Source of the DNA: Pirellula staleyi DSM 6068
Lineage (GTDB): Bacteria; Planctomycetota; Planctomycetia; Pirellulales; Pirellulaceae
Direction of reading: 5' to 3'
Assembly (NCBI GenBank): GCA_945875845.1
Contig: CAMCMB010000001.1
Location: 1 to 64,000, forward strand
DNA: 64,000 nucleotides
Every line of letters begins with the position of its first letter. The first letter of the stretch is position 1. Below, in pieces: positions 219 to 16,217 of this stretch. A program made the translations under genes and the position numbers. A model generated the notes under the pieces. It saw only the letters and a program-made list of their open reading frames with translations. It was not told the origin of the DNA and did not search any database.

Positions 219-860
219 TTACCCTAAATACTTTTGCTCGCAAAACAAACCGGCGGAACGCCGGTCACACCCCACTCGGACCAACGCTGCCACGCCTGCA
301 TCCAAGTCAGTGAAAAGCTCGTCAATGCGGTCGGCAATACGTTGCTGTTCAATCGTCGGCGCAACGAGTATTGGCACGGTGTTAGCAAGAACATCAGAGT
401 TCACGCTGGCTTGATTTACGTGGTTCTTGCACTTGTGAAGAAAGTAACCCGATTTTTGCAAATAATGCAGTTGCTGTGCAATGAACTCCGGATGGATGTT
501 CTTGTGAGGCCTGATCACAGTCATGTGATTCGAGAAACCCCAATCTCCATCCCGGTCTATTACTGCGGTTTTCCCAACCCATGCGGGACTATTTGTGTTG
601 TTGAATAGAACGTCGCCCTTACAAACTCGCCGCTCGCTATCGTCCACAACGTACTTTACTTCATCCAGCACGATTCGACCGTCGGGCGATACGTTCATCG
701 GACGTAAATGAACGATTCCTTCGCCACGATCATTGTGACGGCCGCATGCAAAACCTGAACCTACGGATTTAGCAATCTTACTAACCGTGGAAATGGTCCA
801 ACCAGACGGTAGTTCATCTACCGAGAGAGGATAGTGCTTGATATCTAGACCTGGAATCAT
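219..860 (-). CDS. hsdS: Type I restriction-modification specificity subunit HsdS, half-length
   Basis: The 213-residue product resembles one half of a type I specificity subunit, which recognises the DNA target for the methylase and the restriction motor. It shows the usual opening (LPSGWTISTVSKIA, about residues 18-31), one target recognition domain, and the start of the conserved helical spacer (PTIEQQRIADRIDELFTDLD, about 168-187). Family members normally have about 400 residues with two such halves. Here the spacer stops after ALVRV and the last 20 or so codons read through an inverted repeat, so the second half appears to be lost. Its ATG overlaps the restored hsdR stop (ATGA), the usual coupling in these operons. 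Half-size HsdS proteins can act as homodimers, so it could still work with a methylase. No hsdM is present in the window. I am sure of the family and unsure of activity. Confidence 0.8.
   Translation of the reverse strand: MIPGLDIKHYPLSVDELPSGWTISTVSKIAKSVGSGFACGRHNDRGEGIVHLRPMNVSPDGRIVLDEVKYVVDDSERRVCKGDVLFNNTNSPAWVGKTAVIDRDGDWGFSNHMTVIRPHKNIHPEFIAQQLHYLQKSGYFLHKCKNHVNQASVNSDVLANTVPILVAPTIEQQRIADRIDELFTDLDAGVAALVRVGCDRRSAGLFCEQKYLG
249..265 (-). terminator. Hairpin with T-rich tail at the end of hsdS
   Basis: On the minus strand a perfect 7-bp stem (ACCGGCG / CGCCGGT) with a TTC loop is followed by TTGTTTT, the form of a Rho-independent terminator. It lies inside the last codons of the hsdS frame, which suggests that those codons are not ancestral. 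It could instead be a palindromic repeat unit. Confidence 0.45.
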
Positions 861-897: not shown

Positions 898-2784
898 TTA
901 GATCTTCACCGAACAAAGCAACAGCTTTGCCAAGATTCCTCGTTGACCAAACCAATCGTATTGGAAGTCTTCGAGTTCAATGGCAAGGCTCGTTGCGATA
1001 TGCTGAGCCATCTTATCGAGCCACTCACTCTGTTCGCTCGTGAACACGACGCCAGCAGCCGCTTGCTGCTGTCGCCACAATGCATAGCGATTTTGGACCA
1101 GATCTCCAAAAGGCAATAGCGGTTCGTTCGGTTGAAGCGTGTGTCGAATCAGAGAAACCAGGTCGGTAATGATTTGCCCGCCTTTGCCTTCGATTTTGGA
1201 GTTCTCTAGTGCTTCGTAACAACGCCACAATTCTTCCGGCGTTGTAGAAAGCGGTGGTTGTTGAATTCGCTTAGCAAGTTCTTTTAGATCTCGAAAAGAG
1301 AGTCGACTGGCCGACCATTGGTTATAGAACACTTGCAGTGCTGTCAGCTCGTCTTTGTTGTCTTCAATAAACTGGCGAAACGATTCGATTTTGTTACGTG
1401 CTTTTTCCAAAGCCGCTTCGGAATAGCCAGCCGCCAAGAGCTCATCTTGACTGATGCGATCGATGATTTGCTCGTTGGCTTGTTTGATGTCCAGAATCAG
1501 CTCTCGCAATTTTGGATCGTAGAATGGCTTCACTGCTTTGCGAATTAGTTCTTGTTCAGCGGCATCGAGCTGAGGCTCCGACGGTTCTGTCCCATCGGGA
1601 AGCATTTCACGGGCTTTTGCGTCAATTTCGTCGGCGTTGGTCGACTGCATCAAGTCTTTGATGAGTACTGAAAACGCCTTTCCATCGGCATGTTTCTTGA
1701 TATCGTCTAACTGATCGGCCGTCATGTCATGCGCTAAACGGGACAACTTGCCAGCTAGTGCACAGACTGCATCCGGGTCCGTGCCTCCGGCTTTGATGTA
1801 GTCGAAGACTTGCTTCAGCGTTTTACTTGGCTGACGATCGACTGGCCCTCGCTCAGTCTTGCATTCCCGACAAGCGCCGACGGCATCGATGATCACGAAA
1901 CGGGATTTTGTAAGCTTCGGAAGTGGGTTTCCATTTGGATCTTCTCCGGCAGGAGTTACACCGGCAAGTTCATCGGCGGAACAAACACGAACGCCGCGAC
2001 CTTTCATCTGTTCGAAGTAATTTCCGCTGCGTACGGTGCGAAGGAAAAATACGATCTCGACTGGTTTGACGTCGGTTCCTGTCGCAATCATGTCGACAGT
2101 TACTGCTATCCGGGGGAAGTAGGCATTACGGAATACAGTAAGAACATCCTCGCCTGTCTTGCCTTTGGTTTTATAGTACAAAACCTTCTCGCGCACCGTT
2201 CCGTCGGGATCGGTCACTTGCTCGGTAGTCCGCATTGTACCCGTTCGATAGGTGATCTTTTGGCAAAAGTCATTCCCAAGTCCGAATTCCTGTCGGACGA
2301 TATCAACGATATCATCGGCATGAGAATCATCTTTTGCAAAAATGATCGTTTTGGGTACTTCCTTGCGTCCGGGGAAGATATCTGTGAAGAGTCGATCTCG
2401 AAAAGCTTGGATGATGGTGCGGATTTGGTCGGGCGCTACGACTGAGTTGTCGAGATCTTTGCTGCTATATTGCAAATCGTCATCGAGTATGGATTGTCGT
2501 TCACGACGGGTTTTGCGGCTCCGTTTTCCAACATAATAGCCGGCGTCGACGCCGGAACCTTGTTCGGTAATCCTGGTCCGAATCTCATAGACGTCGTACG
2601 GTACGTTGACGCGGTCCGCAACTGCTTCTTCATGGGAGTATTCCATGACAAGGTTCTTGTCGAAGAACCCGATTGTTTGTTTGCTGGGTGTTGCGGTTAA
2701 GCCAATCAAAAACGTGTCGAAGTACTTGAGGACATCGCCCCACACGCTGTATATCGAGCGATGACATTCATCCACGATGATCAC
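898..2784 (-). CDS. HsdR C-terminal fragment (motor domains)
   Basis: This is the 628-residue frame after the in-frame stop, with a possible GTG start at 2784 (VIIVDECHRSIYSVWGD). It holds the DECH box, LTATP, the second RecA-like domain (TVDMIATGTDVKP; MKGRGVRV) and the helical C-terminal region. The last residues (ILAKLLLCSVKI) come from the wrong frame after the 1-nt shift. No ribosome binding site stands out before the GTG, so separate translation is doubtful. Confidence 0.55.
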   Translation of the reverse strand: MIIVDECHRSIYSVWGDVLKYFDTFLIGLTATPSKQTIGFFDKNLVMEYSHEEAVADRVNVPYDVYEIRTRITEQGSGVDAGYYVGKRSRKTRRERQSILDDDLQYSSKDLDNSVVAPDQIRTIIQAFRDRLFTDIFPGRKEVPKTIIFAKDDSHADDIVDIVRQEFGLGNDFCQKITYRTGTMRTTEQVTDPDGTVREKVLYYKTKGKTGEDVLTVFRNAYFPRIAVTVDMIATGTDVKPVEIVFFLRTVRSGNYFEQMKGRGVRVCSADELAGVTPAGEDPNGNPLPKLTKSRFVIIDAVGACRECKTERGPVDRQPSKTLKQVFDYIKAGGTDPDAVCALAGKLSRLAHDMTADQLDDIKKHADGKAFSVLIKDLMQSTNADEIDAKAREMLPDGTEPSEPQLDAAEQELIRKAVKPFYDPKLRELILDIKQANEQIIDRISQDELLAAGYSEAALEKARNKIESFRQFIEDNKDELTALQVFYNQWSASRLSFRDLKELAKRIQQPPLSTTPEELWRCYEALENSKIEGKGGQIITDLVSLIRHTLQPNEPLLPFGDLVQNRYALWRQQQAAAGVVFTSEQSEWLDKMAQHIATSLAIELEDFQYDWFGQRGILAKLLLCSVKI

Positions 2785-2814
2785 ATCGAAGAACTCAGGT
2801 GGGATGATTGAATT

Positions 2815-3714
2815 TTAGGTTACCGGGACGGGTGGTTTGTTAAATGCACCGGGACCTTCAAAGCTCGATTGTTCTTCGTCCTCCTCGGCAAGATCTGGCT
2901 GGTTGGTGAGAACGGAATAGAGCCGTTGGATGGTCGTGATGATAACGTTGTTAACTGGGTTGAAACGATTGTTGCGAGGATGTTCGACGTTGTAGAGCTT
3001 GTCGAAAGTCTTTGGTTCGCCAGGTGGTGTAAATTGCTGGAATTCTTTGAGCGTTTGCCGTCCTAGATTCTTTCGGTCAACCAGGAAACAAATGCGGCGA
3101 GCATGGCCATGCCGAATTAGACGATATGCGATGTTCGCGGCCGTGAATGTCTTGCCCGATCCGGTTGCCATTTGAATGAGGGATTTGGGTTTGCCGAGGC
3201 AAAGCGACTTTTCTAAGTTGCCTATTGCGATGTATTGCTTAGGCCATAGCCCGTCTGGCGAAAGCACGGGCATGTTTCGCAAGGCTTCGCGCAATTGGTT
3301 TTCCTGCTGTACCAGGGTTCGAAGTGTTTCCGGTCGATAGAATGAAAACACTTCGCGACTTCGGGCGTGCGGCTCAAGCCAGTTAGTGAATTGGGTGACT
3401 TCGCCTGTTGATTCAAATTGGAATGGAAGCGGTCTATGCCAGGCCGGCAAGTTTTTGGGAAGTCCGTCTGAATAACTCGCCGACTGACCTTCCACGCCTC
3501 GCAGGGTGTGTCCAACTGGTTTTGCTTCGACTATTCCGATCGCTTTTGCGTCTACGTAGAGCAAATAGTCCGCGGGCCCATGGGCCCCGGGAAATTCGGT
3601 AATGGCTAAGCCGATACCGGAACCGAGATTCATGTTGGCATACGATTGCACGATCCATCCTGCCGCAGTAAGCAGTGTATCAATGTGTTGTCTTGCGGAT
3701 TCTTCGGGCTTCAT
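2815..3714 (-). CDS. HsdR N-terminal fragment (nuclease domain and motif I)
   Basis: This is the 299-residue translatable part before the in-frame stop. It contains the nuclease domain with Asp...Glu-x-Lys (ADYLLYVDAKAIGIVEAK), the Walker A segment MATGSGKTFTAANIAYRL, and FLVDRKNLGRQTL. It ends NKPPVPVT just before the DECH box, so it could bind ATP but lacks the rest of the motor. The frame could begin further upstream at 3747, but MKPEESARQ matches the usual HsdR start. Confidence 0.6.
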   Translation of the reverse strand: MKPEESARQHIDTLLTAAGWIVQSYANMNLGSGIGLAITEFPGAHGPADYLLYVDAKAIGIVEAKPVGHTLRGVEGQSASYSDGLPKNLPAWHRPLPFQFESTGEVTQFTNWLEPHARSREVFSFYRPETLRTLVQQENQLREALRNMPVLSPDGLWPKQYIAIGNLEKSLCLGKPKSLIQMATGSGKTFTAANIAYRLIRHGHARRICFLVDRKNLGRQTLKEFQQFTPPGEPKTFDKLYNVEHPRNNRFNPVNNVIITTIQRLYSVLTNQPDLAEEDEEQSSFEGPGAFNKPPVPVT

Positions 3715-3799
3715 AGTGTTTTTTGATCTGCTTATATTCGCTACCAAGGTTTGTGCTTGGAAACCGGGAGCTAACGTGCTGTGGCTGATTTCAATTTCC

Positions 3800-6394
3800 T
3801 TATGTCTCAGCCTCTAGTTCATCAATGCCAAGTTCAGTTTGCAATTCTTCGACGGCAATCCTAAGCGGGTCGTATATGGCGATTTCCTTTCCGACGGTTT
3901 CAAAGCTGACAGCCAAAGTGTAATTGGCAGTATTGTCGGGATCTTTACTCCAGCCCTTGTGCCCGCGAACTGCGATACAAAAATTCTCAGGCAACGCATT
4001 TGATCGCACGTAGGCCCAGTCCTTTTGTACAGTTCCCACACTACGGCGAACGTCAGTTATCTGACCATCTGACGATCGCGTGTTAATTGCCCAAGGGAAG
4101 CTGGTACCCTCTCGAACAACCGTATCGTCGTCCTTTGTTGTTCTTGAAACGAACGAATCAATTTGTTCGCCTTTGCGGTTGCTCATCCAGTCTAACCAAG
4201 TAGATAGATATCCTCGGTGAGTTCGTCGCGTTCGACGCGGTTCAGCCGCGTACGACAAGGTCACATCAACGCGAATCAAATAGTCATTTCCTGGCCTATT
4301 GATACTGTTGGGGATAGGGAATTGGTAAATGTGGCACGCGCCCTGTTTGATTTCTTGTTCGCCACGCGTTATGTAAGTGGTTCGATAATCGTCATTGGTT
4401 GAGGCCCGCACAGCGTCCGGAACTCCATATCCGATTCGCGTGATCATCATTGATTTATCAGATTGGCTCAGCGAATTCGCCCATTCGGGCCAACGAGCCG
4501 ACTGCACGATCAATGCTCGATAGAGTAGGCAAGACTCTTCGGGTAGGACGCTTTGTAATTGAGCTGCGATTCGAGTAACTTTTGGTGCGGCAAAAGAGGT
4601 GCCTACCGTGTCTCGATCGAACGCTGGACCTCCGTGAAGAGTTGTTCTTGCAAGATTCGGGTAACATTCCTTTGCATTTGCAGGCACGGAAACGCTTGGT
4701 GACGCTCCAGTCGTTCCAAGAAAGTCGCCTCCAAACTCAACAACTTCAGGCTTTATTGAATCCCAGATCCCAAGCTCACTTCGGCTGAATGCAGATGGTT
4801 CGGCAGTGCGCTTTGCGAACGATTGCCAACCGCCGTCGTCATACGTTTGATAGGCAACGGAGCCGACGGTCAACGCTTGAAAACTCTGAGCTGGATTTGC
4901 AAGTCGACAACAATGTTCGCTTAAGTATTCGGGATAGTTCTTTCCTGCTGCCAGGAGTTCTGTGACTCCAGCCTTGGGAGTCGTGTTTGACAACTTTAGA
5001 TTTCCAATACTTTGAATCACAAGTATGTCATGCTCGTTTGATAGACGATCGATCTCAGCGGCCCATGCGGACATGTGTTTTTTTCGGCAAGGTGCATCCG
5101 CATTGATTGAGTGATTGAAAATACGGGTCTTTCGAGGTCCGTTGTGATAGTGGGTTATCACATCGCGAATGAGCGCAGGCGGCAGCAGCTCCAAAGGTAG
5201 CTTGCAATCACTATTGAGAACTCTTGCGTTCTGAATCCATGCCAAGGGAGCAAGGACTCCAGTTGCTGTGATTTCGTCGCCATAAAGAACGGCGCCGGCC
5301 ACTCGAGTACCATGCCCACCATCCCTCACGTAATCAGCCACATTGTTAGGTGAATCGCTCGGCAAAAAGCAGTGAGAATTCGGTTTGTCTATCGCAGGTT
5401 CAAGGAGTAGATGCTCTTCTTGGATTCCACTGTCGATTACGCAGACGACAGGTGCGCTCGTTGAAGGAGGTTCAACTACTAGCTGAGTCTGAATGTCTCG
5501 AAGTTGACGAGCGTGTTGCTGCGGCAGCTCGATCTCTTCCGGCTCCGCAACCTCAAATATGTAGGGATGATTGAGGATCAGATCCTTGAGGCCACGCCCC
5601 GGTAGCCGGAGCCGAAGCTCAAAGTAGTCAGGTGGTGAATCCGAATTGGGAGCTACGTCCCGAATGATCTCACCACGATAAAATTTCACAAACTCGTCGA
5701 CGGATGTCATACGCTCGTCTTTGAGTTCGTCCCATTTCTGATAGGCGTCGTTTCTTGCTTGAGACCACTCGGCTTCTACCTTGGCCCACGTTTTATCAGT
5801 GAAACGTCCACGCTTTCGCAGCTTGGGCAAAACCCAATTTCCTTGGCAGGAAAAACTGACGTCTACAATGTAATCAGTGTCGGTGTCGAGCTGGGGGAGT
5901 TCGAGAAAGAGTCGATCTGAAAGTATTCTCTTTAGCCGCTCTTCTTGCGTCAAATCTTGTGAAAGTTCATGAATCTTTGCAATGCCAGCTGACCCGCCGA
6001 TGCTCCCAATGAAATCGCGGAGTTTCTCTTGAAAGAAACCAAGCGTTTTGTCTTCGGAGGCGACAATTACAAAACCATCATCCTCTTCTGAAATGATTTC
6101 GAATCCAAAGAAGTTTCGTAGGTCATCGATGTCGAGCGTGTCGTCAATCTGTAGTAGTAATGGAATTCCATCGCCTATCGATGGTAGTCCGTCTTGAACT
6201 CTAGCCGTCTGCTGCGACTGCCAATTGCCCGTAACTGTTGCAACTTGTCCTCCGAGATGGGCACTGTGGCCAGATCGGTTTATGCGATTATCTTGAGTCT
6301 GTTGACTGTCCTGAAAACGAGGCTGTTGATAGCGCGCAGCACCGTCACTTCTTCGTAACAGAGGCAAATAATCGAAAACCTGATTCTCGGGCAT
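3800..6394 (-). CDS. ietS: Subtilisin-like (S8) serine protease, IetS-type
   Basis: This 864-residue protein is a subtilase with all catalytic parts visible: Asp321 in VVCVIDSG, His361 in GGHGTRVAG, the oxyanion Asn465 in QSIGN, and Ser600 in VGTSFAAPK. It has no signal peptide, so it should act in the cytoplasm. About 310 residues precede the protease domain and about 200 follow, with no domain I can name. Its ATG shares one base with the stop of the AAA+ gene upstream (TAATG), so the two are translationally coupled. A coupled AAA+ ATPase and subtilase is the gene pair known as ietAS, first described as a plasmid stability and incompatibility locus and later reported as an antiphage system. 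The location next to a type I restriction locus fits a defence role. The substrate is unknown. Confidence 0.8.
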   Translation of the reverse strand: MPENQVFDYLPLLRRSDGAARYQQPRFQDSQQTQDNRINRSGHSAHLGGQVATVTGNWQSQQTARVQDGLPSIGDGIPLLLQIDDTLDIDDLRNFFGFEIISEEDDGFVIVASEDKTLGFFQEKLRDFIGSIGGSAGIAKIHELSQDLTQEERLKRILSDRLFLELPQLDTDTDYIVDVSFSCQGNWVLPKLRKRGRFTDKTWAKVEAEWSQARNDAYQKWDELKDERMTSVDEFVKFYRGEIIRDVAPNSDSPPDYFELRLRLPGRGLKDLILNHPYIFEVAEPEEIELPQQHARQLRDIQTQLVVEPPSTSAPVVCVIDSGIQEEHLLLEPAIDKPNSHCFLPSDSPNNVADYVRDGGHGTRVAGAVLYGDEITATGVLAPLAWIQNARVLNSDCKLPLELLPPALIRDVITHYHNGPRKTRIFNHSINADAPCRKKHMSAWAAEIDRLSNEHDILVIQSIGNLKLSNTTPKAGVTELLAAGKNYPEYLSEHCCRLANPAQSFQALTVGSVAYQTYDDGGWQSFAKRTAEPSAFSRSELGIWDSIKPEVVEFGGDFLGTTGASPSVSVPANAKECYPNLARTTLHGGPAFDRDTVGTSFAAPKVTRIAAQLQSVLPEESCLLYRALIVQSARWPEWANSLSQSDKSMMITRIGYGVPDAVRASTNDDYRTTYITRGEQEIKQGACHIYQFPIPNSINRPGNDYLIRVDVTLSYAAEPRRTRRTHRGYLSTWLDWMSNRKGEQIDSFVSRTTKDDDTVVREGTSFPWAINTRSSDGQITDVRRSVGTVQKDWAYVRSNALPENFCIAVRGHKGWSKDPDNTANYTLAVSFETVGKEIAIYDPLRIAVEELQTELGIDELEAET

Positions 6395-7404
6395 TAGTTA
6401 CAACCGTTTGTAGATTGGCTTGCTCTTTGTTGCTCCGCGATGGCCGCAGTCAGGTGTTTACCAGCAACTTGCTTCTTTCCTTCAAGCACTGCAGCTTTAG
6501 CAGCGTCTTCCGCTGCTTTGACAACCATCGCAGCAGATGTCCCCTCCAACTGCTTCACGATCGCACGCCAATCGATGTCATTGCTAACCGCAACGGCTGA
6601 CAACCGTGTCCGGAGCAACTGCTCGATCTCTTCGGATCCGGGCAGCGGAATCAAAAACACATCGTCGAAACGGCGAAACAGTGCTGCGTCAAGCGAGTCT
6701 TCGATGTTGGTTGTTGCAACAAGGAGCCCAGGTGCATCGTACTCCTCCATCAATGTGAGTAGCGAATTCACGATTCGAGCAACTTCCCCAATGTCCTTCG
6801 AATTGGCTCTTGATCTCGCAATAAAGTCACATTCGTCGAGCAACAACACGCACGGGCGCTCCTTGGCTGCATCAAATATCGACCGCAAGTTGCTTGAGGA
6901 CTCTCCAAAAAAAGATGAAATCAAGGCGTCGAATCGAACTTTCAACAGCGGCAGTCCAACGTTCCAGGCAAGTCTTTTCGCTCCAAGGGATTTACCACAG
7001 CCTGGAGGTCCGTAGAGTAGGACCGTTTTCCTGGGACGAAGCCCGTAAGCACCGAGCCGTTCACGAGCAGCGTATTCTTGTTCGATACGTGCAAATCTCG
7101 CATCTACTTCGCGAGGCAATACCATGTGATGCTCGAGCGATTCGCGAGGTAACAGGGTGAGAAGTGACTCACCGTGGCGACGGCTTGTTGGTAGATCGCT
7201 TAAAGTCCGCGCCGCCTCGGATGTGGATGTGTTGCGAGTACGTGCCGGACGCGAACGGGCGAGAATGGTTTCCAACTCGTCCGCTAGTCGCGTATGGCCA
7301 ATTTGACGCTCTGACTTCACGATTGTTTGCGCGAGCTGCTCCAAATCGCCTTGGGACCCATCGGCGATCGCTCGAACGACTCGTTTGAGGATTTCTGAAT
7401 TCAT
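6394..7404 (-). CDS. ietA: AAA+ ATPase, IetA-type partner of the subtilase
   Basis: This is a 336-residue AAA+ ATPase. It has Walker A GPPGCGKS (about residues 132-139), Walker B VLLLDECD, sensor 1 VATTN and a likely arginine finger in LFRRFDD. The central-pore-like segment and FFGESSSNLRSIFDAA resemble the FtsH/Cdc48 branch. About 100 residues in front of the ATPase core are helical. I chose ATG 7404 over the TTG at 7431 because GGAAT lies just before the ATG and the TTG would leave almost no space after the upstream stop. It sits between the winged-HTH gene (31 bp upstream) and the subtilase (1-base overlap), so all three form one operon. In ietAS pairs the ATPase probably senses, unfolds or delivers the protease target; that step is inference. 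Confidence 0.8.
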   Translation of the reverse strand: MNSEILKRVVRAIADGSQGDLEQLAQTIVKSERQIGHTRLADELETILARSRPARTRNTSTSEAARTLSDLPTSRRHGESLLTLLPRESLEHHMVLPREVDARFARIEQEYAARERLGAYGLRPRKTVLLYGPPGCGKSLGAKRLAWNVGLPLLKVRFDALISSFFGESSSNLRSIFDAAKERPCVLLLDECDFIARSRANSKDIGEVARIVNSLLTLMEEYDAPGLLVATTNIEDSLDAALFRRFDDVFLIPLPGSEEIEQLLRTRLSAVAVSNDIDWRAIVKQLEGTSAAMVVKAAEDAAKAAVLEGKKQVAGKHLTAAIAEQQRASQSTNGCN

Positions 7405-7435
7405 TTGAATATTCCGTAATTTGCGAAGCAATTAA

Positions 7436-7669
7436 TCATTTGGCAGCCGTTCGTTTGCGAGCAGCAAGTTCATAGTGCCAACCGCCCTCGGCCTTTTCCG
7501 CGATAATCTCGTGACCACGTTCCCTTAACGCTTGAATGGATCGGGAAACGGTTGGTACCGAAACGCCTACCCTCTCCGCCAGTTCAGGCGTCGAGTAGTG
7601 CCCGGACTGAATTAGTTCGAGTAGTTCACTGAGTCGCTGTTCAATCTGCAATGACTTTTCGTAGTGCAT
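7436..7669 (-). CDS. Small winged-helix DNA-binding protein, likely operon regulator
   Basis: The 77-residue product (from MHYEKSLQIEQR) contains a clear winged HTH: LLELIQSGHYSTPELAERVG, VSVPTVSRSIQALRERG, then a wing (HEIIAEKAEGGWHYEL). It ends in a basic tail (ARKRTAAK). It resembles the HTH_11-type domain found alone or in front of WYL domains. An alternative start at 7738 would add 23 residues and place the inverted repeat at 7695-7711 inside the gene; I prefer 7669, which leaves the repeat in the promoter. It is the first gene of the operon with the ATPase and subtilase, so it probably controls them and itself. It might also be a sensor that is cleaved by the protease, but nothing in the sequence shows this. 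Confidence 0.7.
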   Translation of the reverse strand: MHYEKSLQIEQRLSELLELIQSGHYSTPELAERVGVSVPTVSRSIQALRERGHEIIAEKAEGGWHYELAARKRTAAK

Positions 7670-7694
7670 CTCATTTCTCGCTAAAAACGCAAGT

Positions 7695-7711
7695 CTATCA
7701 TCTTGTGATAG
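7695..7711. promoter_or_regulatory. Inverted repeat upstream of the winged-HTH/ietAS operon
   Basis: CTATCA-TCTTG-TGATAG is a perfect 6-bp inverted repeat with a 5-bp spacer, centred about 34 bp before the preferred start of the winged-HTH gene. Another CTATCA follows directly (7713-7718). Its size and place fit an operator for a dimeric regulator, probably the adjacent winged-HTH protein. Confidence 0.5.
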
Positions 7712-7822
7712 GCTATCAGGGCGAGAGGGCCGCCACAAGATGTGGATACGATTAGGCTTCTCTTCACGCCCTCAACAGCCGACATTACTCGCATCGACTG
7801 CTGGTATGGTAGACTTTGCGTT

Positions 7823-7854
7823 CGGAAAGCAAAAAGAGGACGGAAAGCAAAAAG
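7823..7854. repeat. Two-copy tandem repeat, period 18 bp
   Basis: CGGAAAGCAAAAAG occurs at 7823-7836 and again at 7841-7854. It lies about 155 bp upstream of the winged-HTH start and could be a binding site or a chance duplication. Confidence 0.5.
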
Positions 7855-8108
7855 GGTTCGCAGCTCAATTCGCGACGAGAAAGTGCCATCATAGCATGCC
7901 TTCGCGCTGAGCAGGCGGCGACCATTAAGCATACAGCGCATAGGCAACGACGGTCGCCGCCGCATGTCAACACCCGCTTTGTTGCACAGTCAGAGACTTT
8001 TGTTCATTGGCTCAACGCGATTCGCGTCATTCTGCTAAGCTGCGATTTCATGATTTTCAGGATAGGAATGGCTTGCTAAGCACATCCGCAACTGTTTTTC
8101 AACCCAAT

Positions 8109-12984: not shown

Positions 12985-14061
12985 TCAAGTCAACGTGATC
13001 TCGCGACCTTGGACCTGGTAAACGGTTTTGAGCAATTCTGCAACCGCCGCAAATTCGGTTTCTGGTATCGGCTGCCCTATTTCAATTTGTCGGAACAAAG
13101 CTTGTGCTAACGGTGTACGTTCGACGATGGGGATACCATGCGTTAATGCAATCGTTCGAATTTGAGCTGCAATCAAGCTTGCTCCTTTGGCCACTACGAT
13201 AGGAGCTCGCATGGTTTGCGGATCGTATCGCAGCGCGATTGCCAACTCAGTCAGGTTCGTCACGATGACATCCGCTTTGGGTACATCTGCATTGAGTCGC
13301 TGGACCGACAAGTCGCGTTGCACCTTTTTTCGACGCGATTTCACTTGCGGATCCCCCTGCATCATCTTCATTTCTTCTCGCAGTTCCTCGTCCGTCATCC
13401 TCAGATCTTGTTCGTATTTCCATCGTTGGAATCCATAATCAATCATCGACAAGACCAAAAGTGCGGCGGCCGCGTTTCGACACAAATCGATCATCGTTGC
13501 CCAAACGAACTGGCCAACCGTCTCGATATTGGCTGAACCCAATGCCAATATGGAATCCCAACGCGACCAAACGCCCAGGAACAAGATTCCAGCAACAAGG
13601 CTAATCTTAACCAGACCGAAACCGAGCCTCGAAACATTGACGATCGTAAAGAGCCGTTGAAAGCCTTGGATTGGGTTGATTCGAGAGAAATCGATCCCCA
13701 ACTTGTCCGGCAACCATAATACGCCGACTTGCGCATAGTGAACAATCAACGATGTCGCCAGCATTCCCCCCATCAGTGGCAACAAAGCCAGCCCACCTTT
13801 GGTCAGCAATTGGATCAATGGCAGAACGGCCGTGCGCGCATCGGAATCCAAGTCGAGTGGACCGCTCAACTCCTCCGTCACCAATGCTACCATCATCTGA
13901 AACATCCTTGGACCCGTGAAGTCCAACAGCATGACGCCAACTAACAAAAGCGCCGCGGACGAAAAATCCTGGCTGCGCGCAACGTTGCCTTCGTCGCGAG
14001 CTTTCTGTCGCCTATGGTCGGTGGCCTCGTGCTTTTTGTCACCCGAACGCTCATCCGCCAT
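12985..14061 (-). CDS. flhB: Flagellar export protein FlhB with altered cleavage site
   Basis: The 358-residue product is FlhB, the switch component of the flagellar type III export gate in the inner membrane. It has the basic N-terminus (DKKHEATDHRRQKARDEGNVARS), four hydrophobic segments (about residues 30-220), the linker with DLSVQRLNADVPKADVIVTN, and a C-terminal cytoplasmic domain (LRYDPQTMRAPIVVAKG). At the place of the autocleavage motif NPTH the protein reads NLTE, with Asn at residue 269. The scissile Asn is kept but Pro and His are changed, so cleavage may be slow or absent. The start at 14061 (MADERSGDKK) overlaps the end of fliR by 11 bp. The last gene of the fliP-fliQ-fliR-flhB set. 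Confidence 0.93.
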   Translation of the reverse strand: MADERSGDKKHEATDHRRQKARDEGNVARSQDFSSAALLLVGVMLLDFTGPRMFQMMVALVTEELSGPLDLDSDARTAVLPLIQLLTKGGLALLPLMGGMLATSLIVHYAQVGVLWLPDKLGIDFSRINPIQGFQRLFTIVNVSRLGFGLVKISLVAGILFLGVWSRWDSILALGSANIETVGQFVWATMIDLCRNAAAALLVLSMIDYGFQRWKYEQDLRMTDEELREEMKMMQGDPQVKSRRKKVQRDLSVQRLNADVPKADVIVTNLTELAIALRYDPQTMRAPIVVAKGASLIAAQIRTIALTHGIPIVERTPLAQALFRQIEIGQPIPETEFAAVAELLKTVYQVQGREITLT

Positions 14062-14893
14062 TGGCAGCCTCCAGCGGATTGGCAAGGGTTGAAAGTGTGG
14101 AAGACTCCGGTGGGGGGAACAGCCTGGTGGTCATTTCAACCCACTCGACCAATTCGTTCTGAAAGACCCAGCCGATAGTGGACATCGATGTGGCGAGCAC
14201 CAAAATCATGACCGTGACATTGAGGTTAAAGCCGATGGCCAGGATATTAAGCTGCGGTAATGTGCGGCCTATCAGTGCGGTAACCAAGTTTGCCAGCAAC
14301 AATGCCAGGGCGGGTGGGGCTGCCGCCCGCAATCCCACGGACACGCTGTGCCTCAAGAGCTCATGCAAATGTAGCAACCAGCGCTCCTCGGTGAGGACGC
14401 CTCCAGCCGGATAAACACTAAAGCTATCCAAGCAAGCGCCCAAAACAACACGATGGCCCCCCAGTGTTAAGAACAAGGCCATGGCAACCCAAGAGAACAT
14501 TTGACTGACGACGGTGACTGTTTCTTGCGTCGACGGATCTGCGGCTTGGGCAACGTCCATACTGGCAAGTGAGCTAATGACCTGACCGCCGATTTGCAAA
14601 CTCGTGACGATCAACATGACCGACGTTCCGAACAACAAACCCAACAATAGTTCCTTCGCGATACCGATTGCAACGTCAGCCAAGTGGGGTGGTAAAGGAG
14701 TTGAGTTGGCTAACACAAGTGGCGTAATGACCATCGCAATCATGAGCGCCAGCAGCACTTTGACGCGGTTCGGGATCGACGACCCTTGGATCGGCGGCAT
14801 CATGGCGAGCAAGGGACCAGTGCGACTAAGTACACAAAAGAAAGTCCACATTGGGCCATAAAGCAAAGAAGCGAGTGCGTCGCCGCTGGTCAT
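14051..14893 (-). CDS. fliR: Flagellar biosynthesis protein FliR
   Basis: The 280-residue product is an integral membrane protein with about six hydrophobic segments and the FliR features: LLAMMPPIQGSSIPNRVKVLLALMIA near the start, GIAKELLLGLLFG, QIGGQVISSLASMDVAQAADP, and a C-terminal region with GRTLPQLNILAIGFNLNV. With FliP and FliQ it forms the helical core of the flagellar export channel. AAGGGAA lies before the ATG. It begins 15 bp after fliQ and overlaps flhB by 11 bp, so translation is likely coupled. Confidence 0.93.
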   Translation of the reverse strand: MTSGDALASLLYGPMWTFFCVLSRTGPLLAMMPPIQGSSIPNRVKVLLALMIAMVITPLVLANSTPLPPHLADVAIGIAKELLLGLLFGTSVMLIVTSLQIGGQVISSLASMDVAQAADPSTQETVTVVSQMFSWVAMALFLTLGGHRVVLGACLDSFSVYPAGGVLTEERWLLHLHELLRHSVSVGLRAAAPPALALLLANLVTALIGRTLPQLNILAIGFNLNVTVMILVLATSMSTIGWVFQNELVEWVEMTTRLFPPPESSTLSTLANPLEAANGG

Positions 14894-14908
14894 GACGTTC
14901 CCTTGTTC

Positions 14909-15184
14909 CTAACGTTGCGACATGTGTGGCGGTATTTCTCGGTACAAATTGCGGGAGTACTCCAGCATGCGATCGGTTAGCCAAGGCAAGCAAACGATGA
15001 CGGCAAACGTCATCGCAATTAGCTTGGGCACCGTACTGACCGTTTGGTCTTGGATTTGAGTTAGTGCTTGGATGAGGCCGATGGCCAAACCAACCACCAT
15101 ACCGATCAGCAAGAGTGGTGCTCCCACAATCAACGACATTAAGATCGCATCGCGAACCAGATCGATGGCTTCGTTAGGTGTCAT
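14909..15184 (-). CDS. fliQ: Flagellar biosynthesis protein FliQ
   Basis: The 91-residue product is the two-helix export gate subunit FliQ: MTPNEAIDLVRDAIL, then a first membrane helix (SLIVGAPLLLIGMVVGLAIG), the conserved LIQALTQIQDQTVSTVPK turn, and a second helix (LIAMTFAVIVCLPW). The length is normal. A strong AGGAGG lies 9 bases before the ATG. It follows fliP by 52 bp and precedes fliR by 15 bp. Confidence 0.95.
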   Translation of the reverse strand: MTPNEAIDLVRDAILMSLIVGAPLLLIGMVVGLAIGLIQALTQIQDQTVSTVPKLIAMTFAVIVCLPWLTDRMLEYSRNLYREIPPHMSQR

Positions 15185-15236
15185 TCAAAAAATCCTCCTG
15201 TCGGCGGGCGTCGATTTATTAGGCTTCGGTTCGTAA

Positions 15237-16217
15237 TCACGGAATGGTTCCAAAGCTCGCGATAAGCATTTCAACGACCAGTCGCCATCCATCCACCAAC
15301 ACAAACAACAACAGCTTGAACGGCATCGAGATCATGGCCGGTGGCAACATCATCATTCCCATCGACACAGTCACCGAAGCGATCACGATGTCTAGGATGA
15401 GAAATGGCAAATAGATTTTGAAGCCCATCAAAAACGCTGTCTTGAGTTCACTAAGCATATAGGCCGGCAACAGGACTTGAAGTGGTACCTCATCGGCGTT
15501 TTTGGGGCTCGGACTGCCGGGAGCATAACGGCTGTAAAACAAGAAGATGTCGTCTTCATTTTGGGCCATCACGATTTGACGAGCCATGAATTCACGTACG
15601 GGCGCAACTCCGCGTTCCCAGGCGTCCATTGCAGAGACTTGACTTCCTTCTTGCGTGTACGGTTCAATGCCTTCGTTGTAAACGCGAGTCCAAACGGGGC
15701 TCATGACGAAGATCGTGATGAAGAGCGAAATCGAAGTGATGACCTGACTAGGTGGAAGTTGCGGTGCACCTAGAGCTTGTTTGAGAAGTCCCATCACGAC
15801 GATCACACGAACATAGCAAGTGGTCATCAACAAGATGGCGGGTGCGAGGCTCAACACGGTTAAAAGCAACAGCATCTGCAGCGAGCTCGAAAGCCCCTTG
15901 GGGCTCAACCAGGCATCGGGACCGCCAAGGATATTGCTGGCAAGGTCCTCTGCAGACGATCCGTTCGCCTCGTCGCCAAGCGTCTGCCGTAGATTTTGGA
16001 CAACTGCATCCTGAAGCACCGGATTTTCTCGGCTCTTCAAAGCTCGGCTGAGAAGACTTTCTCGCTTCTCACCGGAAACCGCTCGCTCTTGCCCCATCGC
16101 ATTGGATGCAACGCTAGCAATGCATAGCGATAGGATCGCCGCGAAAAAACGTATCCCCCGAACGAGGCATCGGAATCGGTTTAAATTGGCTTCAAGGGGA
16201 GCCCGGTTGGTTTGCAT
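15237..16217 (-). CDS. fliP: Flagellar biosynthesis protein FliP
   Basis: The 326-residue product is FliP, the main pore-forming subunit of the flagellar export gate. The C-terminal 230 residues carry the family features: LTVLSLAPAILLMTTCYVRVIVVMGLLKQALG, PSQVITSISLFITIFVM, FMARQIVMAQNEDDIF, LPAYMLSELKTAFLMGFKIYLPFLILDIV and SMGMMMLPPAMISMPFKLLLFV. FliP is normally about 245 residues. The extra N-terminal part holds a signal-like hydrophobic stretch (FFAAILSLCIASVASNA) and a charged linker, in line with the cleavable N-terminus of many FliP proteins, though longer. First gene of the visible fliPQR-flhB set. Confidence 0.94.
   Translation of the reverse strand: MQTNRAPLEANLNRFRCLVRGIRFFAAILSLCIASVASNAMGQERAVSGEKRESLLSRALKSRENPVLQDAVVQNLRQTLGDEANGSSAEDLASNILGGPDAWLSPKGLSSSLQMLLLLTVLSLAPAILLMTTCYVRVIVVMGLLKQALGAPQLPPSQVITSISLFITIFVMSPVWTRVYNEGIEPYTQEGSQVSAMDAWERGVAPVREFMARQIVMAQNEDDIFLFYSRYAPGSPSPKNADEVPLQVLLPAYMLSELKTAFLMGFKIYLPFLILDIVIASVTVSMGMMMLPPAMISMPFKLLLFVLVDGWRLVVEMLIASFGTIP

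What the first reader, a model, noticed from the sequence alone, without database searches (positions are those of the whole stretch)
6394..7718. IetAS-type pair led by a winged-HTH gene with its own operator-like palindrome
The AAA+ ATPase and subtilase share a TAATG overlap, and a 77-residue winged-HTH gene precedes them with a perfect CTATCA/TGATAG repeat in its promoter. The two-gene antiphage system is known, but a dedicated small DNA-binding third component is not part of the description I know. It could make the system inducible, or the regulator could be a protease target that couples sensing to expression.
Basis: partly seen in the sequence, partly recalled or inferred. Interest (0 to 1): 0.65.

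Follow-up and report, generated by a model that had tools for sequence, protein, structure and literature searches.

The report
Shared switch gene heading defence operons
A tiny DNA-binding gene in front of an antiphage gene pair carries a matching binding site in its own promoter, and the same gene-plus-site cassette sits in front of many unrelated antiphage systems in planctomycetes and a few other bacteria, so it looks like an exchangeable control switch for bacterial immunity rather than a part of one system.

Summary
Observation confirmed: a 77-aa winged-HTH gene (7436-7669, minus) precedes IetA/IetS homologues and has a palindrome, GCCTATC-N7-GATAGAC (7693-7713), in its promoter.

The interpretation needs changing. 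The HTH is no dedicated IetAS component. It belongs to a small family without a sensor domain that heads unrelated defence operons: of 55 non-redundant loci, 20 IetAS, 11 type IIG R-M, 10 DrmD-like SNF2 (9 with type III R-M), 3 HmaA, 6 single other systems; 5 have no recognised defence gene.

Almost every copy has the same operator, GTCTATC-N7-GATAGAC, starting 41-69 nt before the start codon. In 27 loci not used to define it, 27 of 27 match at 11 or more of 14 bases, against 1 of 515 control windows. It fills the spacer and -10 of a promoter that mostly has a good -35 (the window's own is poor). A recognition-helix change (P39 to Q) goes with an operator change, in one clade. Beside IetA homologues lacking the HTH (4 of 10 close, 42 of 43 distant ones in 248 genomes) no operator was found in the 10 tested.

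Best reading: an autorepressor cassette exchanged between defence systems, like BrxR/CapW or RptR in role but another family. Binding, repression and inducing signal are untested.

The parts
7693..7713 (-). Operator GCCTATC-ACAAGAT-GATAGAC, ending 23 nt before the HTH start codon
   Evidence: 13 of 14 matches to the family operator; only site within 1 mismatch in the genome
7436..7669 (-). 77-aa winged-HTH regulator (HTH_11)
   Evidence: Pfam HTH_11 5.9e-9; predicted wHTH fold, pLDDT 81; family of 55 non-redundant loci
6394..7404 (-). IetA-type AAA+ ATPase, Walker A GPPGCGKS and Walker B LLLDE present
   Evidence: PADLOC IetA 4.5e-74; Pfam AAA 4.5e-30; motifs
3800..6394 (-). IetS-type subtilase with VIDSG, GHGT and GTSFA motifs of an Asp-His-Ser triad
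   Evidence: PADLOC IetS 4.8e-67; Pfam Peptidase_S8 3.1e-30; motifs
898..3747 (-). Type I restriction HsdR-like gene read as two ORFs (2815-3747, 898-2784) of one frame parted by an in-frame stop; possibly the distal part of the same operon
   Evidence: Pfam ResIII and EcoEI_R_C; PADLOC REase_I; single stop in frame
219..860 (-). Type I specificity subunit (HsdS) homologue, short
   Evidence: PADLOC Specificity_I 6.1e-51; Pfam Methylase_S 4.5e-8

Best explanation
The 77-aa protein is most likely a dimeric autorepressor. It binds the 21-bp operator GTCTATC-N7-GATAGAC that lies in the -35/-10 spacer and -10 region of its own promoter, and so keeps the whole operon (itself, IetA, IetS, perhaps the R-M genes behind) at a low, self-limited level. 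Promoter, operator and repressor form one cassette that has been placed in front of many unrelated defence modules; IetAS is only one cargo. Shown here by sequence: the gene, the operator, their co-occurrence, their position, and the range of downstream systems. Inferred: dimeric binding, repression rather than activation, and the benefit (limiting toxicity or auto-immunity, with a burst of expression after entry into a new host or when the repressor is lost). Not known: the releasing signal; the protein has no domain beyond the wHTH.
For: Operator at 11 or more of 14 positions in 26 of 28 discovery loci and 27 of 27 further loci, against 1 of 528 and 1 of 515 random windows of the same loci, and 4 of 560 and 4 of 540 shuffles. 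Strict patterns with the -35 hit 5 sites in 248 genomes and 2 in 392 (one shared, so 6 sites), each directly upstream of an HTH homologue by the coordinates; reversed control 0. Of 54 sites, 28 have TTGACA exactly, ending one base before the operator, and 44 have at least 4 of its 6 bases, giving a 17-nt spacer. 46 of 47 proteins with P39 have GA at the inner right arm, 0 of 8 with Q39 do; P39 proteins of type IIG loci (L074, L076, L077, L123) keep GA, so it follows the helix, not the system. 10 IetA loci without the HTH have best operator scores of 8-9 of 14 in 600 nt. Known or candidate defence genes follow in 50 of 55 loci. Supported branches of the HTH tree need at least 3, 3 and 5 changes for IetAS, type IIG and the SNF2 group; one supported set of four holds four different systems.
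Against: No binding or expression data. The window's own promoter is atypical: the consensus scan found none there and its -35 is weak; 10 of 54 sites have 3 or fewer bases of TTGACA, and the right arm resembles TATAAT at only 3-4 positions in the common forms. Exceptions: L065 has no operator and lies behind, not before, a type IIG pair; L088 (this genome's second copy) precedes a Na+/H+ antiporter; L114 and L127 have no recognised defence gene. L087 (10 of 14) and L085 have poor left arms. The loci are related by descent, some nearly identical (L096/L108), so counts overstate independence. The 72-column tree is poorly resolved: 15 of 52 inner branches well supported.
Confidence: 0.8

Rival explanations
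1. Dedicated third component of an inducible IetAS: the HTH acts only with IetAS, and IetS cleaves it to couple sensing to expression.
For: 20 of 55 HTH loci head IetAS; 6 of 10 close IetA homologues in the class carry it.
Against: 35 of 55 loci have no IetAS behind the HTH, nearly all with the same operator; 4 of 10 close and 42 of 43 distant IetA homologues lack the HTH; of the 7 other IetA loci at 49-68% identity in the 392-genome phylum sample none shows it in the flank held.
Confidence: 0.06
2. Activator or concentration-dependent switch (like C proteins of R-M systems): the HTH promotes its own promoter at low level and represses at high level.
For: First gene of the operon, small, autoregulatory site; the window and some other loci have a weak -35 that could need help.
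Against: A single site over the spacer and -10 and an optimal 17-nt spacer fit repression better than activation; most loci have a near-consensus -35.
Confidence: 0.1
3. Hitch-hiking: an ordinary mobile regulator gene kept near defence islands without controlling the cargo.
For: Some copies stand beside non-defence or unknown genes (L088, L065, L114, L127).
Against: Same-strand position directly before the first cargo gene in most loci and conserved operator in its promoter.
Confidence: 0.04

Closest known systems
BrxR / CapW (WYL-domain repressors; PMC9122601, PMC9122588)
   Same: wHTH repressors of defence operons with inverted repeats in the promoter, found beside diverse defence systems (abstract and passages seen of the first, passages of the second)
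   Different: They carry WYL and further domains for ligand sensing; the protein here ends after the wing, and neither name appears among the 19 PDB matches of its profile at E up to 0.01
RptR (PMC12255303)
   Same: 79-residue autorepressor in front of type I R-M, in Gammaproteobacteria; sites overlap the -10 (abstract and passages seen)
   Different: RptR is described as a tri-helical protein binding TAGCTA repeats; here a wHTH with a 21-bp inverted repeat, another host range and more kinds of cargo
CapK/CapS (PMC13373217)
   Different: CapS has a STAS domain and a partner kinase activated by ssDNA; neither is seen in the 77-aa protein, and no partner kinase was looked for beyond the genes listed
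C (controller) proteins of R-M systems
   Same: Autoregulators encoded just ahead of restriction genes (passage in PMC12255303; otherwise recalled)
   Different: C proteins are XRE-type HTH binding C-boxes (recalled); this is an HTH_11 wHTH
IetAS
   Same: ATPase and subtilase pair with overlapping genes
   Different: Scores are far under the NCBIfam equivalog cut-offs (112.7 of 900; 218.6 of 510); the described pair has no regulator (recalled)

Membership tests
IetAS | AAA+ ATPase of the IetA family with Walker motifs | tested here: met
   PADLOC IetA 4.5e-74; motifs
IetAS | S8 subtilase of the IetS family with Asp-His-Ser motifs | tested here: met
   PADLOC IetS 4.8e-67; motifs
IetAS | NCBIfam equivalog cut-offs for IteA/IteS | tested here: not met
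   218.6 of 510 and 112.7 of 900 bits: a divergent relative, not an equivalog by that standard
IetAS | Antiphage activity | not testable with these tools
   needs infection assays
BrxR/CapW | WYL domain | tested here: not met
   77 residues; the PADLOC WYL profile matches only at positions 4-59 of 229, its HTH end; no WYL family among the 25 of 44 Pfam matches shown
BrxR/CapW | Inverted repeat in the promoter of the defence operon | tested here: met
RptR | Promoter with TAGCTA-type 6-bp repeats | tested here: not met
   The conserved site is GTCTATC-N7-GATAGAC
RptR | Sequence or fold relation to RptR | tested here: inconclusive
   No RptR among the named PDB matches shown; no direct comparison was made
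New HTH/operator cassette family | HTH homologue plus operator within 120 nt upstream | tested here: met
   Window 13 of 14

The most novel reading that the evidence does not exclude
A sensor-less promoter/operator/repressor cassette is a general plug-in for bacterial immunity: it moves as a unit between unrelated defence modules, and because the operators are nearly alike, copies at different loci of one cell repress one another's promoters and tie separate defence systems into one regulon. A newly acquired module would be silenced by a resident cassette of the same helix class and would flare up where none is present. Of 7 genomes seen with two copies, 4 carry the same helix class and so are predicted to cross-talk; 3 differ.
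Probability: 0.3. Interest if true: 0.8.

Novelty: new variant of a known kind. Interest (0 to 1): 0.62.

Why it matters
How defence operons are held in check is known for few regulators, several of them with a sensor domain. Here a minimal regulator and its operator can be read from sequence for unrelated systems (IetAS, type I, IIG and III R-M, HmaA, Druantia, Abi_2). It offers a candidate regulator for IetAS, a motif for finding defence operons without knowing their genes, and a natural experiment in regulator/operator co-evolution. If copies cross-talk, defence systems of one cell would be linked in a way not described in the papers seen here.

Tried and rejected
Scanning for sigma-70 promoters at 7400-8100 gave none, so the window's promoter rests on comparison only. 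An exact TCTATC-N7-GATAGA search of the genome found nothing, because the window's left arm is CCTATC. Looking for more members of a regulon in this genome led nowhere: the 2-mismatch sites (18) hardly exceed the reversed control (12); only the window site and the one before the second HTH copy stand out. Conserved Cys or His as a metal or redox sensor: no column has over 30% Cys; His passes 30% only at residue 53 (34 of 55), so no metal site is suggested. Plasmid and phage records: no homologue at E up to 1e-3. The structure search gave generic wHTH matches. Rows dropped before counting: L089 (a longer DeoR-type regulator), L083 (same HTH as L084), nine loci that repeat, L098 (weak) and L132-L151 (20 weak matches, E 8e-6 to 7e-4). 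In one search the value for L153 (8) is not valid: that locus is cut by a contig end, so the stretch tested was not the one upstream; the same promoter (L066) scores 13. Papers: the searches showed no report of this family or motif in their listings; most subscription papers and all preprints of bioRxiv are not held.
Full report
What is there. On the minus strand the order is operator (7693-7713), HTH (ATG 7669, 77 codons), a 31-nt gap, IetA (7404-6394), IetS (6394-3800, sharing TAATG), then an HsdR-like gene in two ORFs of one frame parted by one in-frame stop, and a short HsdS homologue. The window begins at base 1 of its contig, so the far end of the R-M locus is not seen. The two other genomes of the same genus in the class sample have neither the HTH (E up to 1e-6) nor IetA (E up to 1e-32).

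A family of small regulators. The HTH protein found matches in 26 of 248 genomes of the class (the weakest, L089, is a longer DeoR-type protein and was dropped). A profile scan of GTDB genome contigs gave 53 confirmed loci, of which 33 are clear homologues (L099-L131) and 20 weak ones were dropped. Record titles name planctomycetes mostly, four Acidobacteriota (Bryobacter L101, L102, Silvibacterium bohemicum L117, Bryobacterales L129), one Alphaproteobacteria MAG (L104, possibly misbinned) and three only 'bacterium' (L099, L100, L105). Viral contigs gave three clear homologues. Plasmid and phage records gave none. After removing duplicates 55 loci remain, with proteins of 77-104 residues. The model is a plain winged HTH (pLDDT 81, pTM 0.61). 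The best solved matches by profile are NiaR, a biotin-repressor-family regulator and DeoR, over their HTH parts.

What it heads. First genes downstream were identified by PADLOC or Pfam for representatives and by similarity for the rest. Of 55: IetAS 20 (window, L066, L069, L071, L072, L075, L087, L096, L097, L101, L106, L108, L111, L116-L118, L120, L128-L130); type IIG R-M 11 (L077 and L123 by PADLOC, the other nine by blastp clustering with L077); DrmD-like SNF2 10 (L061, L062, L067, L068, L070, L105, L112, L124, L126, L131), with a type III Mod homologue following in 9 (not in L131, whose SNF2 gene is a fragment); HmaA 3 (L102 by PADLOC, L104 and L115 85-87% identical to it over nearly the whole length; HmaB was found in L102 and L115 only); and one each of Druantia DruA (L073), HsdR (L064), type III Mod (L095), ABC-3C CTD10 (L085), Abi_2 about 0.5 kb downstream (L103) and a helicase with partial PDC-S37/Mko matches (L125). 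That makes 50. The other five are an AAA operon of unknown role (L063), a Na+/H+ antiporter (L088, the second copy in this genome), and L065, L114 and L127 without a recognised defence gene. L065 lies behind a type IIG pair.

The operator. Reading upstream sequences of the class loci showed GTCTATC-N7-GATAGAC. Scored as matches of 14 in the 120 nt before the start codon, 26 of 28 discovery loci and 27 of 27 further loci reach 11; random windows of the same loci do so in 1 of 528 and 1 of 515, shuffles in 4 of 560 and 4 of 540. Leaving out L065, sites start 41-69 nt upstream. The two discovery loci below 11 are L065 (8) and L087 (10). The strict form with the -35 occurs at 5 places in 248 class genomes and 2 in 392 phylum genomes (a slightly wider pattern), one shared; each lies directly before an HTH gene; the reversed control gave none. 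These patterns came from the same kind of loci, so this shows exclusiveness more than prediction.

Promoter geometry. Of 54 sites, the hexamer ending one base before the operator equals TTGACA in 28, has 5 matches in 9, 4 in 7 and 3 or fewer in 10. With the right arm as -10 (TAGACA in 19, TAGACT in 8, TAGAGA in 8) the spacer is 17 nt. A protein there should shut out RNA polymerase, hence repression (inference). The window is one of the weak-promoter cases.

Helix and operator change together. 46 of 47 proteins with P39 have GA at the inner right arm; 0 of 8 with Q39 do (6 GT, 1 GC, 1 GG) (Fisher 7e-9, not corrected for relatedness). The eight Q39 proteins form one supported clade, so this may be a single event. 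Type IIG loci with P39 keep GA, so the change follows the helix.

Optional, exchanged cassette. In 248 genomes there are 53 IetA matches. Ten are 61-100% identical; six have the HTH, four (G069, G467, G399, G476) do not. Of the other 43 (some may be other AAA+ ATPases) one has it (G377). Positions were compared, so an HTH too divergent for E 1e-6 would be missed. Ten HTH-less IetA loci have best operator scores of 8-9. On the HTH tree the system labels need 21 changes where 11 is the least possible and shuffles average 31.8 (0 of 200 as low): clustered, yet with repeated exchange. For that tree L103 was still labelled unknown. Supported branches alone force at least 3 (IetAS), 3 (type IIG) and 5 (SNF2 group) changes, and one supported set of four (L103, L123, L064, L112) holds four systems. 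The tree has few columns.

Comparison with the literature. BrxR/CapW, CapK/CapS and RptR show that repressors ahead of diverse defence operons are a known kind (outline and passages of PMC9122601 and PMC12255303, passages of PMC13373217 and PMC9122588). RptR, 79 residues, is nearest in style, but its fold and site as described differ. The searches listed no report of this HTH family or operator. I file it as a new variant of a known kind.

Confidence. That the HTH recognises this operator and regulates its operon: about 0.85 to 0.9. That it represses: about 0.8. What releases it is unknown.

Noticed in passing
window 898-3747 (minus): The HsdR-like gene behind IetS is interrupted by one in-frame stop shortly before the DECH motif; it may be inactive, or the stop a sequence error.
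   Followed up: partly
L088 (own genome C15:20353-20608): A second, Q39-type copy of the HTH with an operator-like site (2 mismatches) precedes a Na+/H+ antiporter gene rather than a known defence gene.
   Followed up: partly
L061, L062, L067, L068, L070, L124, L126: Operons of HTH, DrmD-like SNF2 helicase and type III Mod; a type III Res gene was confirmed by PADLOC in L099 (= L062) and L124. This looks like type III R-M with an added SNF2 helicase rather than DISARM; DrmA/B/C were not searched for through the whole operons.
   Followed up: partly
L116, L130, L128 and the window: HTH-led IetAS can be followed at once by R-M genes (type I in L116, type III in L130, a methylase-like piece in L128, HsdR/HsdS here).
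   Followed up: no
L104:12758-16819: HmaA homologue followed by a 1354-aa STAND-type NTPase (PF25199, just above its cut-off) instead of HmaB.
   Followed up: no
L063 (same locus as L107): HTH-led operon of an AAA/sigma54-like ATPase, a second AAA protein and two proteins without Pfam match at E 0.001; a possible undescribed system.
   Followed up: partly
window 12985-16217 (minus): Genes that read as flagellar or type III export FlhB, FliR, FliQ, FliP (recognised by eye, not searched).
   Followed up: no
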